A stretch of 64,000 nucleotides of DNA from Dentipellis sp. KUC8613. Its lineage: Eukaryota; Basidiomycota; Agaricomycetes; Russulales; Hericiaceae. Positions 730-16,969 of this stretch are shown here, piece by piece. Location of the stretch: contig NSJX01000004.1 in NCBI GenBank assembly GCA_002286715.1, positions 1,057,803 to 1,121,802 on the forward strand, given 5' to 3'. Numbering within the stretch: position 1 is the first letter of the stretch; every line of letters starts with the position of its first letter. The notes beneath the pieces are model-generated. The model saw nothing but the letters and a program-made list of their open reading frames with translations, did not search any database and had not been told where the DNA came from. The translations under genes were made by a program, and so were the position numbers.

Positions 730-2047
730 CTAAACCTCCATCATTGGCTGGACAGTGCGTCCAACCAACCAGCCCACTTTGGCCACCCACTGATCCCTCA
801 CCTCCCGCAGCGCCTCCGTGCCGTGCCCCTTCGCCTCCGCAAACTCATCCAGTGAGCGCTCCCATCCCCGCACTGTCTCTCCACCAAACATACCTCCTTG
901 CCTATTCACGATCTCATCCACGCGATCAATCCAGGCCTTCCACTCGTCCAGCAATCGCGGCAAGATCATCGGCACGAGCGACGCCTGCGTGAGCGGCGGC
1001 TGTGCGAGGATATGCGACGTGAGCGCGGACAGGAACATGAACGTTTCCGGGGGCTGTGGTTTGTCTTTCTGAAGACAAGACGTCGATTGAGTGTTGGCTG
1101 ACGCTGAAGAGGAAGAGGCGGGTATATCCGAGAAATAAGGGAGATATGAGAGGCATGCAGAAACAAAGTCGTTGATATGGGGTCGGATCCGCGAAATGAT
1201 ATATTCTTCGCGCATGCCACCAGTGTTCGAATCGGATCCAGAAGGCGAGTTGAATCCGGACGAATGGGAGGGGGGAGATGGACGGCCAAAGCCCATGGAC
1301 GAGTTACCGAGTCCAAATCCACTGGGACGGTTGTTGAAACTGGTAGATGCGAATCCAAAACCGAAGGCTGCTGGAGATGCTGCTTGGGAGAATGAAGGAG
1401 TGTTGGAATAAGGATATGCATCTCGCAGTTTCTTGGCAGATTGAGCAAGGGCCTGGATGGCGGTTTCCAGGGAGGGACGGGGAATGAGGGACAAAATCAG
1501 TGGCTTCAGAGAAGGTTGGGCTTGGAGAAGGGAATTGAGGAGAGGCAGAAGAGATTGCGGAGGCAGACTCGCTTGCGTATGCCATGCATCAGCAATGTGA
1601 CATAGGCGCAATATAAGCGAACCTACCTAGGAGCACACCAACATCGATGTCTTGGTCTCCCGCTTTTTCGTCCTTATTCTCCTTGGAGGGGTCACCATCC
1701 TTCGATGCTGTCGCCACAGTGGCTGGCGTCGTGCGCGCCCTTTTGGGCACCGCGCGCCTCGGTCGCTCTGGGGTGGGGCTTCTGTCCATAGCATCATCCC
1801 GTGAGCCGTGGCGAGACATGCCACTGTCCTGGTCATCGTCATGTTCGATTCGCCTCTTCTGAGGGCGAGTAGACTGGCTGATAGTCGATGCAAGTTGTTG
1901 GAAGGCAACGGGGTGCGCGAAGTGCGCGGCGGAAGCAGGTCGGGCCATAGAGGACAGACCGAAACCAAAACCGAAGGGGGAGGGGGCGTGAGTAACGGGG
2001 TGAGAGTGAAAATCAAGTTGCGGCTGGGGCTGAATGAGGTTGGCCAT
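730..2047 (-). CDS. STS1: STS1/Cut8, nuclear proteasome tethering factor
   Basis: Two coding exons (complement of 1627-2047 and 730-1571) joined over a 55-nt intron give 420 aa. The family anchors 26S proteasomes at the nuclear envelope and supports turnover of nuclear proteins such as mitotic regulators. The N-terminal third is low complexity, with a basic stretch containing PKRARTT that could serve as an NLS. The Cut8 core starts exactly at the splice (VGVLLASLPPQSLLPLLNSL), followed by a Gly/Phe/Ser-rich insert (about residues 190-250) and a helical C-terminal bundle. The fit across the junction fixes the intron. The start at 2047 is chosen because the sequence upstream is not family-like; an in-frame ATG lies 45 nt further up. 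Function is inferred from family resemblance. Confidence 0.85.
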
Positions 2048-2189
2048 GGTCAAAGCTGTGGTCAAGAACAACGCCCGTACAAAGCGACGCAACCGCGCCG
2101 TGCTCCTTTAGACACGTCCCCGACCCGCCCTAAACTCAGCGTCACGTGAACTCTATTTCCCTATATAGCTTGCTCCTGCCTCACTTTTT
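2048..2189. promoter_or_regulatory. divergent promoter of STS1 and the snoRNA host candidate
   Basis: Short gap between the STS1 start and the presumed start of the plus-strand non-coding transcript. It contains a CACGTG E-box near 2143-2148, a TATA-like CTATATAG near 2161, and then a pyrimidine-rich run. That run resembles the 5' TOP tracts common in snoRNA host genes. Transcription start sites are inferred. Confidence 0.4.
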
Positions 2190-2253
2190 TCTTCTCGTTC
2201 TCCCACTGTCGGTGAGTTTATCCTCCCCTCTTCTCTCGGCGACGACGAGCCAA

Positions 2254-2317
2254 AGTATGAATCGCTACTTCGAAGCCTTTGGCTTATGAACTTTTTCATC
2301 TATACCCAAATTTCTGA
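2254..2317 (+). ncRNA. candidate C/D snoRNA in host intron 1
   Basis: A C-like box AGTATGA (2254-2260, 5 of 7 to RUGAUGA) and a D box CTGA (2314-2317) lie in intron 2212-2371. The D box is 54 nt from the acceptor. I found no confident rRNA complement upstream of the D box. This is the weakest of the three. Confidence 0.35.
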
Positions 2318-2424
2318 GCCTTTTTTAGTGGCCACGTCTTCTACATGCTGACTTCGCGTGTTGATCTTCAGTTGCTCAAAGCTATCTATTACGTTCTTGG
2401 GTGAGTCTCATCTTCAGTCTCCAT

Positions 2425-2504
2425 CAGATGACGAATAAAATAGAAGTCAAGCCCTGACCCCGTCTCAAGGACGGGTGTTGATGAGCATACCATGCTAATA
2501 CTGA
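2425..2504 (+). ncRNA. candidate C/D snoRNA in host intron 2, snR53-like guide
   Basis: Boxes in order: C (CAGATGA 2425-2431, or ATGACGA 2428-2434), D' CTGA (2454-2457), C' TTGATGA (2478-2484), D CTGA (2501-2504). The span is 80 nt, normal for a box C/D snoRNA. The guide just upstream of D contains CCATGCTAATA, complementary over 10-11 nt to the conserved 18S rRNA segment TATTAGCATGG recalled from memory. The fifth base upstream of D pairs with the A of TTAGC. To my recollection this is the site modified by yeast snR53 (18S Am796). The intron-host setting fits; identity is inferred. Confidence 0.55.
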
Positions 2505-2612
2505 TGCCTTTCTTTCATCTTCGTCATTTTCGACCTTGTGCTTACCTCCTTTCTCCCAGGTGTTCTCCGCGAAAGTCTCCACTGGTGAGTCTACGCTTCA
2601 GAAGCTTTCAAT

Positions 2613-2691
2613 ATGATTACTCCTATATCTATCCGAGCGCTGCGTTCAACGTAGCCGTGACGATTAAAAAAATTACAATGTCTTCAACCGA
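2613..2691 (+). ncRNA. candidate C/D snoRNA in host intron 3
   Basis: C-like ATGATTA (2613-2619) and C' GTGACGA (2657-2663) each match RUGAUGA at 6 of 7. The matching D-like boxes are CCGA (2633-2636 and 2688-2691), which deviate from CUGA. Span (79 nt) and distance to the 3' splice site (52 nt) copy those of the intron 2 candidate. No convincing target was found. Confidence 0.35.
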
Positions 2692-3001
2692 ATGATTCCT
2701 CTGTCGCAACCTTCTGTCATTGACTAACATCACGTTTTCACAGCTTCATGTAGTTCCTACAGTCGTTTGCATGTTCTATCGATTGTATGTAATACTAATG
2801 AAAGCTTTTGTCTCCCGTCTGTCTCGTCTTCGCGTGTTCTGAAGAAACATCTCGGTCCGATAAGTGGTATCCAGCGATCTGAACGATAGCATTTTGAAAC
2901 TCGAGCTTGACTAGGAATGTGGGTAGGTATATGTAGAGTACATGTATGAAATTCGAATGTAGGAGGTCAACTAACGAGATATCGCGTCCGTGCACGTCCA
3001 T

Positions 3002-6000
3002 CTAATGCGGATCCGTCCACAAGATATTGACAACCCACATCACAGCAAAGCCAAGGGCCACTCTGGTCTTCAGTCCCGGCCGCAAGTCCACCCCTCCATA
3101 CCAGAGACGGAATCCAGACGACGATGGTGGAGATGGTCCCTCTGCAAGACGATCCACCCAGCGCCGTGGCCTAATCGGGGTCATCGGTGGTTCCAGTAGC
3201 TGCTCGGAATCGCGATCCTCTGGCTTCTGCTGTCGATCGCCCTGTACAGTCAGAGCCACGGCATCTGGCGTTGCCACAGGTGAGTACGAGGCATCGCGGT
3301 CGTGCCGACTGCTTGTTGATACTGGACTGTACCCCACGTCGTTAGTTGTTGTTGGTAGCTGTTTCTTTGAGCCGCTGTCCCCGCATATCCAGGATGTTAT
3401 TTCGCCCGTGGCCCAGGACACGTTGTAGCTGATGTAGACAAATACAACCGCCGTGAGGACCATGTTGAGGGAACGCCATCTCGTCCACGGTAGGATAATG
3501 AGGATGCCCTTGGTGTCTGCGCCGAGCCAGAGGTGATATTGGATGATGAACGTCTCCAGCGAGCAGGTCCCGAAGAAAGCAAAGAAGCGGGAGGTCGCAG
3601 AACGAAGAATTGGGTTAGCGTTGCGTAGGATAACGAATGCGCCGACGGGGAGGAATGAAATGTAGGGGTGCCAGCCATTGTACACAAATTTGTCTGGCTG
3701 TGCAAGCTCGAAAATGAAGAACCAGACCATGACGAGGGCCGAGGCGCCAATACCAATCTTCGACGCAAGGGGCCAGTACTGATGGTCCGTCAGACGATAT
3801 TCTCGGATCTTGATGAAGACTACGGCGCTGAGCATGCCAAAGTAGACGATCCAGAGGTCTAAATTGAAGCGGAACGCCCATTCCTTAGCTGACCAGTGGA
3901 TATGGCAGAAGCGAGATAGGAAGTCAAACAAGGCTTGCAGTAACCACGGCTCCGACATGAACCATGTGACAAGACCCATAGACAATAGGATCTTGCCTAC
4001 CAGGAAAACGGTCCGCTCGTTGAATCGTGAACCGAGGGCCATTGTCACGTAGAGGATCAGGTACCACGTTGACACCAGGGGGGCGAAATAGTACGAGATG
4101 TAGTCCGTGTTCATGGTGTACGCTAGTACCATGGTGAAAAAGTTGAGACGTATCATGACCTTGGGAAATGGGCGTTAACATCGCGAAAACTGTCGACATC
4201 TGTCGTAACCAGATACCCACCTGCGCCACCCGCTTGAACCCAAAGTCGGCCTTTTTGATATAGAATGTGGTGTGGCCGTACCCCGTCATATATAAGTATG
4301 CAGCAACCAAGACGCGGATCGGGTTATAAACGCCTGAGATCTTAGATGCACCAAAATAATGGTAGATGAGAATGGCGACTACGACGCGTTAGCGAGAATT
4401 CCGGATGAGGTGAAAAGGGGGGGGACTGACTCTGCATCCAGCCTTTCCATTCGTCTGTCTGCTCTCTGTTCAGAAAGCCAAGATCCTTGTCGCCGCGCTT
4501 CACAGTGACCAAACCGACGACAAGACACAGAATATTGAGAAAGCCATACGTCCAAGGGTCAAATTGTTTCTGCTCTTTGACCCAAAATCCGGTTCTGTCT
4601 GCCAGGTAAACAGTTGAGATCGCACCACTGACTATCAGTGGCGGAAGTGTCTCCTCTCCGAACCACGAAGAGCCAGGACCTTGCGATCCCGCGCCAAATA
4701 AATAAATAAATAAGCACCCATATGGAGCAGTGCTGTGTTTCACTCACCACTAGACCGGTAATGGAGGAAGAAGGCATATGGACCCCACAGCAACACGGTG
4801 ACCAAGACTACTAGATGCAGTATATGCGGCCACGGATAGCTTCGGCAGCACGTCTTGTCCAATGGGAACACTTTCGGTAGACGATCGTTGCAGCGGAGAT
4901 TAAGCAACAGGTTTGCCTGGGTTCGGACAATGACATCAGAAAAGTGCAAGCCATCTTCGGTTTGTGAAGGATCAAGCATGTCATTGAACGCCAACGGCAG
5001 GGATATTGGGATCCTACGTTTGCCGGAGCCTAGTATATCCATGACACCAGCGGAGGTAGGGTGGATGCGATGATATAGATCCGAGTTCATAGCGTCCCGA
5101 TCCGCAGCAAGCATGGTCGTTGCTCGCTCGTACGACAACTTGGACGCAATGACATCCTCGATAGGCAACACAACCACTTCATCGGCGGGCGCGCGTTGAG
5201 CCTGGGAAATGGAGTTAATGATACTTTCAGTGTTGGCTTCCCAGGCGGATATCCCGCCTGACATGTCGGCATAGCGTAAATACCACAGGCCGGAACCGAG
5301 CACGAGGAGTGTTGGTCTATCGGAAGACGCCCCCGAATCCGGAGCGTTCAGGATGTCGTCGAGTTGTGTTGAATTAAGAAATGGGTCCCAGTAGAACGAC
5401 AGTCGGATGCCAGAACGAGAGTGTAGTAAATGGTCGGAGTGTTTAGAATCGTCGTCCGGGGGGCTGGTAGGCAATGTGGGGTCAACAATATTGGCGAATT
5501 GGAAGAAGAGCTTTCTGGTGACAGAGTCGCCGAGAAAAACCGCGCGGCTTGAGGCAAGGCAAAATTCTGCATCTTTTGGCTGGTACGCGTGGGTCATGCA
5601 ACCTGCAGGGACGAAACAGCTTTATTCGAGGCGCGCTCCTCAGAAGTTGCCACTTGACGTACCGTCAGGCTGCCAATTCTTGAATTTCGTGTCAAGCCAT
5701 CGACCGCTGTTCAGAAGCGCACCGCAGTGATGAGGATCCAAGCTGTCTGAAGACACTGTCAGCCTGGAACTCTTCACGGGACGGGTAGGGCTTACCCAGC
5801 AACGAATATCGAGTTAGTCCGAATACAAATGCCAACACAATTGCTGCTAAGGAAACATAATGGGGCCACAAAGGATTGACGGAGAATGCAAAAGGTCGAG
5901 ACTGTACCATAAGGCAGGTGGAGAGAGACTGAGGATGATTACTCCTTGAGTCTGTCTGGGGACGTGACAACTTGAAGCTCGTCGAATCCAATTGCGCGCC

Positions 6001-15837: not shown

Positions 15838-16969
15838 ATGGTCTGTTCTTCTCCGTCCTCCCTTTTGGTCCACGAACTAACGAAGGCTCTAGCCCCCGGT
15901 GAAGACAACAATATCTCACGATGAATGGGAGCGACGGATGGAAGAGGTTCAAGTTTCTAAAGAGTGCGTACACGTTTCGTTGCTTTTTTGAGAGAAAGGC
16001 AGAGCGTCCTAGGATGAACAAACTTTTGGGAATCTCGCTGATTACACATTGATGAGATAACAAAAATTGCATGTATTATCTGAGCTCGACGCCCTGTCTT
16101 TGTCTTCTCTGCTTTCCACGAGCCACGACAATAACTGACCCTTAATTTACAGAGACTTGAACCAACTAGTAATGAACTACCTTGTTATTGAAGGCTACAA
16201 GTCAGCCGCAGAAGAGTTCAGCCAAGAAGCAAATGTGAAGCCACCAGTCGACTTTGAGAGCATCGAGAGCAGAATGAACATTCGGGAGGCGCTGCAGAGG
16301 GGCGACGTGCAAGATGCTATTACGCGCGTGAACGATCTGAACCCTGAGGTGTGTATCCTTTCTTGTCTTACGGGCCGCTTGCCATTGGCAGGCGGCTAGA
16401 TGATTATACTCTTGCATGCACCACTCTCAGGCCCTTCGGGTCGATGATGATCATGCAACACCAAAACTTCAGTCTTCAATATGATTCTTCTCCTACGTGA
16501 TTGGAATGCAGGAACGTGACGCTCATGCGCCCTTGATTTACAGATTCTCGACACGAATCCGGCGTTATATTTTCACCTGCAGCAGCAGAAGCTGATTGAA
16601 TACATCCGTCAAGGCCGGGTGGCGGAGGCGTTGGACTTTGCACAGACAGAGCTTGCACCGCGCGGGGAGGAGAATCCCGAATTCCTAGCTGAGCTCGAGC
16701 GGACGATGGCACTTTTGGCGTTTGACAGCGCGGCCGCGCCGGCGGCGATTGCGGAGCTTCTGTCGCCCGCGCAGCGGATGAAGACTGCGGGGGCGGTGAA
16801 CGCGGCCGTGCTGGAGAGCCTGAGCCAGGACTGCGAGACGAAGCTGGTGGGGCTGTTGCGGACGACGGTGTGGGCAGAGTCGATGCTGGACGAGCGGGCA
16901 GAGTTTCCGAAGGTGGATCTGAGCGAGGGGCTTTCGGGTGGCGGGGAGGATACGGTGATGGGGGAGTAG
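15838..16969 (+). CDS. GID8: Gid8-type LisH-CTLH subunit of the GID/CTLH ubiquitin ligase
   Basis: Four coding exons (15838-15840, 15893-15963, 16153-16348, 16544-16969) give 231 aa, the usual Gid8 length. The first coding exon is only the ATG, followed by a 52-nt intron. The protein begins MPPVKTTISHDEW. LisH comes first (DLNQLVMNYLVIEGYKSAAEEF), then CTLH (NIREALQRGDVQDAI...) and the CRA region (LDTNPALYFHLQQQKLIEYI, AEALDFAQTEL). Gid8 is the scaffold joining substrate receptor and RING modules of the ligase that degrades gluconeogenic enzymes in yeast. The last exon is much more GC-rich than the rest, but the reading frame is intact. Confidence 0.9.

What the first reader, a model, noticed from the sequence alone, without database searches (positions are those of the whole stretch)
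2190..2790. Candidate intron-encoded C/D snoRNA cluster with a non-coding host
Three introns of 160, 159 and 159 nt sit in a row, separated by non-coding exons of 29 and 25 nt. Almost every other intron in the window is 45-65 nt. Each long intron has C/D-like boxes with the presumed D box 54, 55 and 52 nt from the 3' splice site. That spacing is hard to obtain by chance and matches intronic snoRNA biogenesis. The transcript would start at a pyrimidine-rich tract.
Basis: partly seen in the sequence, partly recalled or inferred. Interest (0 to 1): 0.78.

Follow-up and report, generated by a model that had tools for sequence, protein, structure and literature searches.

The report
Three guide RNAs in fungal introns
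A small fungal gene that apparently makes no protein carries, one in each of three introns, short RNAs that would tell the cell where to methylate its ribosomal RNA and the spliceosome RNA U6; it is a known kind of gene, but one of its predicted target sites looks new.

Summary
In detail: introns of 160, 159 and 159 nt (2212-2371, 2401-2559, 2585-2743), exons of 29 and 25 nt, a C-like box 27-30 nt into each intron and a D box ending 54, 55 and 48 nt before its end. Intron 1 has a 14-nt perfect complement to agaricomycete 25S rRNA touching its D box (predicted base = yeast Um898) and a 10-nt element for yeast Gm867. Intron 2 has a 10-nt complement to this genome's own U6 (A53 in human numbering) and a weaker element for yeast Um2417. 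Intron 3 has a 15-nt perfect complement to fungal 25S, where the yeast, N. crassa and Dictyostelium tables I read show no methylation. The exact guide strings occur once, twice and once in the 34-Mb genome. The second U6-guide copy lies in another long intron, with guides conserved and intron ends diverged. Rfam scores are far below cut-off, so I do not file these as Rfam snR40 or snoU6-53. No expression or methylation data and no relative's genome were reachable. Multi-intron snoRNA hosts with little coding potential are already described in fungi, Basidiomycota included. New member of a known kind.

The parts
2162..2169 (+). TATATAGC, possible TATA element of the host gene
   Evidence: sequence only
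2179..2205 (+). pyrimidine-rich tract, presumed start region and exon 1 (exon 1 ends at 2211)
   Evidence: sequence only; start not mapped
2212..2371 (+). intron 1 (160 nt), host of C/D RNA 1
   Evidence: GTGAGT...CAG
2238..2320 (+). C/D RNA 1: stem GGC/GCC, C ACGACGA 2242-2248, hairpin arms about 2249-2255/2277-2283, C' TTATGAA 2284-2290, D CTGA 2314-2317
   Evidence: Rfam snR40 19 bits, cut-off 50, E 0.76
2259..2273 (+). D' guide GAATCGCTAC (2259-2268) and D'-like TCGA (2270-2273), predicted base = yeast 25S Gm867
   Evidence: 10 of 10 complement to LSU printed in PMC12287172; D'-like box matches CUGA at 2 of 4 positions
2300..2317 (+). D guide CTATACCCAAATTT (2300-2313) and D CTGA, predicted base = yeast 25S Um898
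   Evidence: 14 of 14 complement; TATACCCAAATTTCTGA exact once in genome
2372..2400 (+). exon 2 (29 nt)
2401..2559 (+). intron 2 (159 nt), host of C/D RNA 2
   Evidence: GTGAGT...CAG
2422..2509 (+). C/D RNA 2: C ATGACGA 2428-2434, D' CTGA 2454-2457, hairpin 2459-2464/2470-2475, C' TTGATGA 2478-2484, D CTGA 2501-2504
   Evidence: Rfam snoU6-53 18.5 bits, cut-off 36, E 0.53
2438..2457 (+). D' guide (pairing part AGTCAAGC 2445-2452) and D' CTGA, predicted base = yeast 25S Um2417 (tentative)
   Evidence: best site in L007, but 19 of 200 shuffled guides pair as well somewhere
2490..2504 (+). D guide CCATGCTAAT (2490-2499) and D CTGA, predicted base = U6 A53 (human numbering, recalled)
   Evidence: 10 of 10 complement to own U6; exact twice in genome
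2560..2584 (+). exon 3 (25 nt)
2585..2743 (+). intron 3 (159 nt), host of C/D RNA 3
   Evidence: GTGAGT...CAG
2606..2699 (+). C/D RNA 3: C ATGATTA 2613-2619, D'-like CCGA 2633-2636, hairpin 2639-2644/2650-2655, C' GTGACGA 2657-2663, D ATGA 2692-2695
   Evidence: no Rfam match listed here up to E 10
2675..2695 (+). D guide ACAATGTCTTCAACC (2675-2689) and D ATGA, predicted base = first U of 25S GGUUGAAGACAUUGU (about yeast U2587, count recalled)
   Evidence: 15 of 15 complement to 25S printed in PMC4024029 and PMC5327576; exact once in genome
2744..3000 (+). start of exon 4; 3' end not determined (3000 is arbitrary)

Best explanation
The locus is a multi-intron snoRNA host gene that probably encodes no protein. 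An RNA polymerase II transcript starting near 2180-2200 is spliced and its exons are by-products. Each intron carries one box C/D RNA placed about 28 nt from the 5' splice site and about 50 nt from the 3' splice site. After splicing and debranching, box C/D proteins protect each RNA and exonucleases trim the rest. The mature RNAs guide 2'-O-methylation: RNA 1 on 25S rRNA (yeast Um898 and Gm867 sites), RNA 2 on U6 (A53, human numbering) and, more tentatively, 25S (yeast Um2417 site), RNA 3 on 25S at GGU*UGAAGACAUUGU. Shown by sequence: intron signals, boxes, complementarities, uniqueness, paralog. Inferred: transcription, processing, methylation.
For: Box and spacing regularity across the three introns. 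D guides of 14, 10 and 15 perfect pairs to agaricomycete LSU, own U6 and fungal 25S. Predicted bases of RNA 1 fall on two known yeast sites whose spacing (31 nt) matches the printed LSU, with the Am876 and Gm908 positions also A and G. Exact guide strings once, twice and once in 34.1 Mb. Paralog L006: 59 of 78 identical from box C to D against 7 of 20 and 18 of 52 in the flanks; guide blocks 15 of 15 and 19 of 19; hairpin keeps a pair through changes on both sides (by eye). Best two relaxed Rfam matches are C/D snoRNA families in introns 1 and 2 on the right strand. Fungal precedents for the gene design.
Against: Rfam: 0 matches at cut-off in the window and E-values of only 0.53 and 0.76 in the relaxed scan. 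Intron 2 alone is modest: 37 of 2000 shuffles reach its 10-nt match. Box C of intron 1 is off-consensus, its D' box weak, and its D' guide lies within a predicted hairpin. The stems next to C/D of introns 2 and 3 are short (2 pairs by eye). Some rRNA target stretches were found by searching for the complement; the strain's own rDNA is not in the assembly. No expression, splicing or methylation data.
Confidence: 0.93

Rival explanations
1. The introns belong to a short coding gene or to the leader of a coding gene, and the snoRNAs are ordinary passengers in its introns.
For: One frame of the presumed spliced RNA is open for 73 codons, without an ATG. The paralog sits in an intron of a DCTN5-like coding gene, after its stop codon, and the 16.4-kb RNA in a LisH/CTLH-like coding gene.
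Against: No ATG in exons 1-3 as drawn (from 2190); the longest ATG frame in the spliced stretch to 3000 is 23 codons.
Confidence: 0.06
2. Some of the three are decayed or non-guide copies: the boxes and guides are remnants and only one or two RNAs are still made.
For: Box C of intron 1 is off-consensus, and the paralog L006 has a poor C box (ATGCAAC). The D' elements of introns 2 and 3 are not better than 19 and 6 of 200 shuffled guides.
Against: D guides are perfect and, for introns 1 and 3, unique in the genome; spacing is uniform.
Confidence: 0.2
3. Chance: three unrelated long introns that happen to hold box-like words and short complements.
For: Boxes are short and common; shuffled intron 2 reaches its match in 37 of 2000.
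Against: Shuffles reach introns 1 and 3 in 2 and 0 of 2000 (the latter optimistic); predicted bases of RNA 1 are known yeast sites; the paralog conserves both guides of RNA 2.
Confidence: 0.01

Closest known systems
Fungal polycistronic intronic snoRNA clusters I-III (PMC3596301) and UHG-like snoRNA hosts of Neurospora crassa (PMC2780460)
   Same: Several introns in a row, one C/D snoRNA each, short exons with little coding potential; reported in Basidiomycota too (passages and sections read)
   Different: None of clusters I-III (snR78-72, snR57-55-61, snR41-70-51) has this set of guides
snR40 (yeast; Rfam RF01201)
   Same: D guide and D box for 25S Um898
   Different: The 18S Gm1271 guide of snR40 is absent from RNA 1, replaced by an element for the Gm867 site; 19 bits against a cut-off of 50
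snR50 (yeast)
   Same: Site Gm867 is predicted for the D' element of RNA 1
   Different: Here it shares an RNA with the Um898 guide; snR50 sequence itself was not compared
snoU6-53 / MBII-28 (Rfam RF00377)
   Same: Guide CCAUGCUAAUA and CUGA for U6
   Different: The match is to the first (C-proximal) part of the Rfam model, while here the guide stands before box D after a C' box; a second guide is added; 18.5 bits against a cut-off of 36
snR66 (yeast), N. crassa CD2 (Um2379)
   Same: D' element of RNA 2 points to the Um2417 base
   Different: 8 contiguous pairs plus 3 after a bulge against L007; N. crassa CD2 is listed with 13

Membership tests
Box C/D snoRNA | Boxes C and D (RUGAUGA / CUGA) near the ends | tested here: met
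   C ACGACGA, ATGACGA, ATGATTA; D CTGA, CTGA, ATGA. Imperfect in RNA 1 (C) and RNA 3 (C and D); PMC3596301 accepts ATGA as D
Box C/D snoRNA | Guide of 10 or more pairs ending just before D, target base at D+5 | tested here: met
   14, 10 and 15 pairs
Box C/D snoRNA | Terminal stem closing C and D | tested here: inconclusive
   GGC/GCC in RNA 1; only 2 pairs by eye in RNA 2 and RNA 3 (flanks)
Box C/D snoRNA | Binding of fibrillarin/Nop56/Nop58/Snu13 and stable accumulation | not testable with these tools
   no RNA or protein data
Rfam snR40 (RF01201) | Score at or above gathering cut-off | tested here: not met
   19 bits against 50, E 0.76
Rfam snoU6-53 (RF00377) | Score at or above gathering cut-off | tested here: not met
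   18.5 bits against 36; paralog 20.7
UHG-like non-coding snoRNA host gene | One snoRNA per intron, several introns | tested here: met
   three of three introns
UHG-like non-coding snoRNA host gene | Spliced RNA without a long reading frame | tested here: met
   longest ATG frame 23 codons in 2190-3000 as drawn; transcript ends unknown
UHG-like non-coding snoRNA host gene | Intron interiors conserved, exons free to change | tested here: inconclusive
   only intron 2 could be compared, with a paralog in another gene; no relative's genome reachable

The most novel reading that the evidence does not exclude
One transcript co-produces guides for the ribosome and the spliceosome: a fungal U6-A53 guide joined to a 25S guide in one RNA, and a guide for a 25S base (first U of GGUUGAAGACAUUGU, about yeast U2587) that the yeast, N. 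crassa and Dictyostelium tables I read do not list. This fungus would then carry an extra 25S methylation and a U6 mark not in the N. crassa table (nor, from recall, in S. cerevisiae; S. pombe is open, since the passages read mention further U6 sites).
Probability: 0.45. Interest if true: 0.5.

Novelty: new member of a known kind. Interest (0 to 1): 0.36.

Why it matters
It gives exact, checkable predictions: five named bases in 25S rRNA and U6. If the U6-A53 guide works, a filamentous fungus keeps a U6 methylation known from mammals and absent from the N. crassa list. It also shows guide elements reshuffled between snoRNAs: the yeast snR40 Um898 guide sits beside an element for the yeast snR50 site. 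Rfam at its standard cut-offs reports none of the RNAs described in this window, so snoRNA annotation of such genomes by that route alone would miss them.

Tried and rejected
Rfam at gathering scores: 0 matches in 64 kb. rRNA families in the own genome: RF02543 asked and RF01960, none answered; an LSU pattern with up to 1 mismatch and 2,601 bases of the L007 LSU found nothing, and the exact complement of the intron-3 guide was found on no reverse strand, so rDNA seems to be missing from the assembly. rRNA patterns in viral contigs: 0 in each. CCGA as box D of intron 3: set aside, because the 15-nt complement would run into it and because C-box position 6 (U) faces D position 1 (A) if D is AUGA (pairing rule recalled); the 16.4-kb RNA has the same AUGAUUA/AUGA pair. 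A D' target for intron 3: best LSU pairing -16.0 at GGGUAUAGGGG, reached by 6 of 200 shuffled guides, D'+5 base on no listed site; left open. Protein-coding reading of the exons: weak. U2 was compared and gave nothing convincing; U5 was fetched and printed but not compared. The fungal snoRNAome paper (PMC5824354) is not held, so whether this cluster is listed there is unknown. mgU6-53 with fungi: 0 papers. The Arabidopsis landscape paper (PMC8351944) was only searched for position numbers and gave reference-list hits. Of the three papers, one was read in passages (PMC12287172) and two were not opened.

Full report
Observation. Introns run 2212-2371 (160 nt), 2401-2559 (159) and 2585-2743 (159), each GTGAGT...CAG, with exons of 29 and 25 nt between them. 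C-like boxes start 30, 27 and 28 nt into the introns, D boxes end 54, 55 and 48 nt before the intron ends, and C-to-D spans are 76, 77 and 83 nt. Branch-point-like words CTGAC, CTTAC and CTAAC begin 24, 19 and 20 nt from the ends of introns 1, 2 and 3. Upstream are TATATAGC (2162-2169) and a pyrimidine-rich tract. The neighbour on the other strand has a Cut8 domain (PF08559, E 8e-12, above its cut-off).

Known RNA families. At gathering scores Rfam reports nothing in the window. A relaxed scan of 1800-3200 gives four matches; the best two are C/D snoRNA families on the right strand in introns 1 and 2: snR40 at 2238-2319 (19 bits, cut-off 50, E 0.76) and snoU6-53 at 2473-2537 (18.5 bits, cut-off 36, E 0.53). 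The other two are a minus-strand snoRNA match (E 6.3) and a bacterial sRNA (E 6.1). These scores alone prove nothing. The alignments show that the guide and D box are nearly letter-perfect while the rest differs.

Intron 1. CTATACCCAAATTT (2300-2313) is a 14-of-14 complement of a mushroom LSU stretch printed in PMC12287172 and touches box CTGA at 2314. Of the nine passages shown from that paper, seven have the full 14-nt target and two differ in its first base, leaving 13 (read by eye); the eukaryotic contig L007 gives 12. The D+5 base faces the U of yeast Um898, which snR40 guides (PMC5199042 table passage). A second element GAATCGCTAC (2259-2268) is a 10-of-10 complement of the same LSU; counting five from a D'-like TCGA (2270-2273), it faces the base of yeast Gm867 (listed for snR50). 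The two predicted bases are 31 nt apart in the printed LSU, as 867 and 898 are, and the positions of Am876 and Gm908 are A and G. The printed LSU was found by searching for the complement of this second element, so the 10-nt match is partly post hoc; by my arithmetic a 10-nt match to a stretch that short has a chance near 0.02. The spacing agreement is independent of that. TATACCCAAATTTCTGA occurs exactly once in 34.1 Mb; four other places have two mismatches. Weak points: box C is ACGACGA, and the D' guide lies within a predicted hairpin.

Intron 2. CCATGCTAAT (2490-2499) is a 10-of-10 complement of this genome's own U6. With CTGA at 2501, the D+5 base faces the second A of AUUA, A53 in human numbering (recalled). 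CCATGCTAATNCTGA is found exactly twice in the genome, here and at C161:58760-58774; 16 other places have one mismatch. The other copy (L006) lies in a 164-nt intron after the stop codon of a DCTN5-like gene (Pfam DCTN5 E 1.2e-08 and 2.1e-04 on two exons, both below that family's cut-off). From box C to D the copies agree at 59 of 78 positions, against 7 of 20 and 18 of 52 in the flanks; the guide blocks agree at 15 of 15 and 19 of 19. The hairpin between them changes from CCGUC/GACGG to CAGUC/GACUG, keeping the pair (by eye). The D' element AGTCAAGC has its best site in L007 at GCUUGACU, and D'+5 gives the yeast Um2417 base, but 19 of 200 shuffled guides pair as well somewhere in L007: probable, not shown. 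L006 has a poor C box (ATGCAAC) and may be decaying or may use its well-formed C' box.

Intron 3. ACAATGTCTTCAACC (2675-2689) is a 15-of-15 complement of fungal 25S. I recognised the target from memory; print confirms it in a broad-fungal LSU primer (PMC4024029) and in a contig of an earthworm transcriptome whose best protein match is a Cenococcum (fungal) protein (PMC5327576). It occurs exactly once in the genome; three other places have one mismatch. With AUGA (2692-2695) as box D, the target is the first U of GGUUGAAG, about yeast U2587 by a recalled count back from Gm2619. The yeast table lists no methylation between Um2421 and Gm2619, the Dictyostelium table passage none between the equivalents of these two, and the N. 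crassa Table 1 none between Um2383 and Um2682 (its authors call the list not exhaustive). Its D' element has no convincing target.

Chance. The longest complement ending within two bases of CTGA or ATGA was 12, 10 and 15 nt (targets: own U6, L007, the 25S fragment). Dinucleotide shuffles reached this in 2, 37 and 0 of 2000. Of 1,596 tiles of 160 nt over both strands the best eight were printed; the five with 12 nt or more are tiles of introns 1 and 3 and one at 16401. That last tile led to another intronic C/D-like RNA, an unplanned positive. Intron 2 does not stand out in this test and rests on its paralog. The 25S fragment had been chosen for containing the intron-3 complement; my own estimate for a 15-nt match between such an intron and about 5.5 kb of rRNA is below 0.001.

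Host. Spliced from 2190 to 3000, the RNA has no ATG in exons 1-3 and no ATG frame above 23 codons; one frame without ATG is open for 73 codons. Fungal hosts in PMC3596301 (section 5 and passages) and PMC2780460 (passages, Table 1 and one section) have little coding potential and were compared there with mammalian snoRNA hosts.

Mechanism. Most likely: transcription, splicing, debranching, protection by box C/D proteins, trimming, and 2'-O-methylation of the named bases. Only the sequence side is shown; nothing here tests expression, protein binding or methylation.

Place among known things. The kind is known. This set of guides is not among the three fungal clusters of PMC3596301. The fungal snoRNAome catalogue was not held, so I do not claim that the set is unpublished. 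Reshuffling of guides between snoRNAs in fungi is stated in the abstract of PMC2780460 and is visible here. For U6, N. crassa Table 1 lists only Am47; the S. pombe paper PMC10484740 (passages) names A41, A64 and C55-C57 and mentions several other sites, so absence there is not shown.

Verdict. Observation confirmed, interpretation supported with corrections, ordinary in kind. Three points are of moderate interest: a fungal U6-A53 guide joined to a 25S guide, a predicted 25S site absent from the three tables read, and the failure of standard Rfam cut-offs to report any of these RNAs.

Noticed in passing
window 16349-16543 (+): A 195-nt intron of a LisH/CTLH-like gene holds another C/D-like RNA: C ATGATTA 16400-16406, guide ACTTCAGTCTTCAA + ATGA (16481-16484), 14-of-14 complement to LSU contig L007; a relaxed Rfam match to snoMe18S-Gm1358 (21.4 bits, cut-off 50, E 0.18) covers an 18S-like guide CATGCACCAC, which from recall is the yeast snR40 Gm1271 site.
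   Followed up: partly
L006 1461-1624 (G000:C161): Second copy of the U6/25S double guide, in an intron after the stop codon of a DCTN5-like gene; its C box is poor.
   Followed up: yes
G000 contigs C104, C11, C120: Seven U6 matches above cut-off, four of them within about 25 kb on contig C104.
   Followed up: no
G000, whole assembly: No LSU rDNA found by pattern or by DNA search, so the rDNA array is probably missing from the assembly; the family searches did not complete.
   Followed up: partly
L007 (JABSRU010000113.1): A contig filed under a gammaproteobacterial MAG is a eukaryotic LSU rRNA, i.e. contamination.
   Followed up: no
window 730-2162 (-): The Cut8-like gene and the snoRNA host are divergent, with about 115 bp between the presumed Cut8 start codon (2047) and the TATA-like element (2162), so they may share a promoter region.
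   Followed up: no
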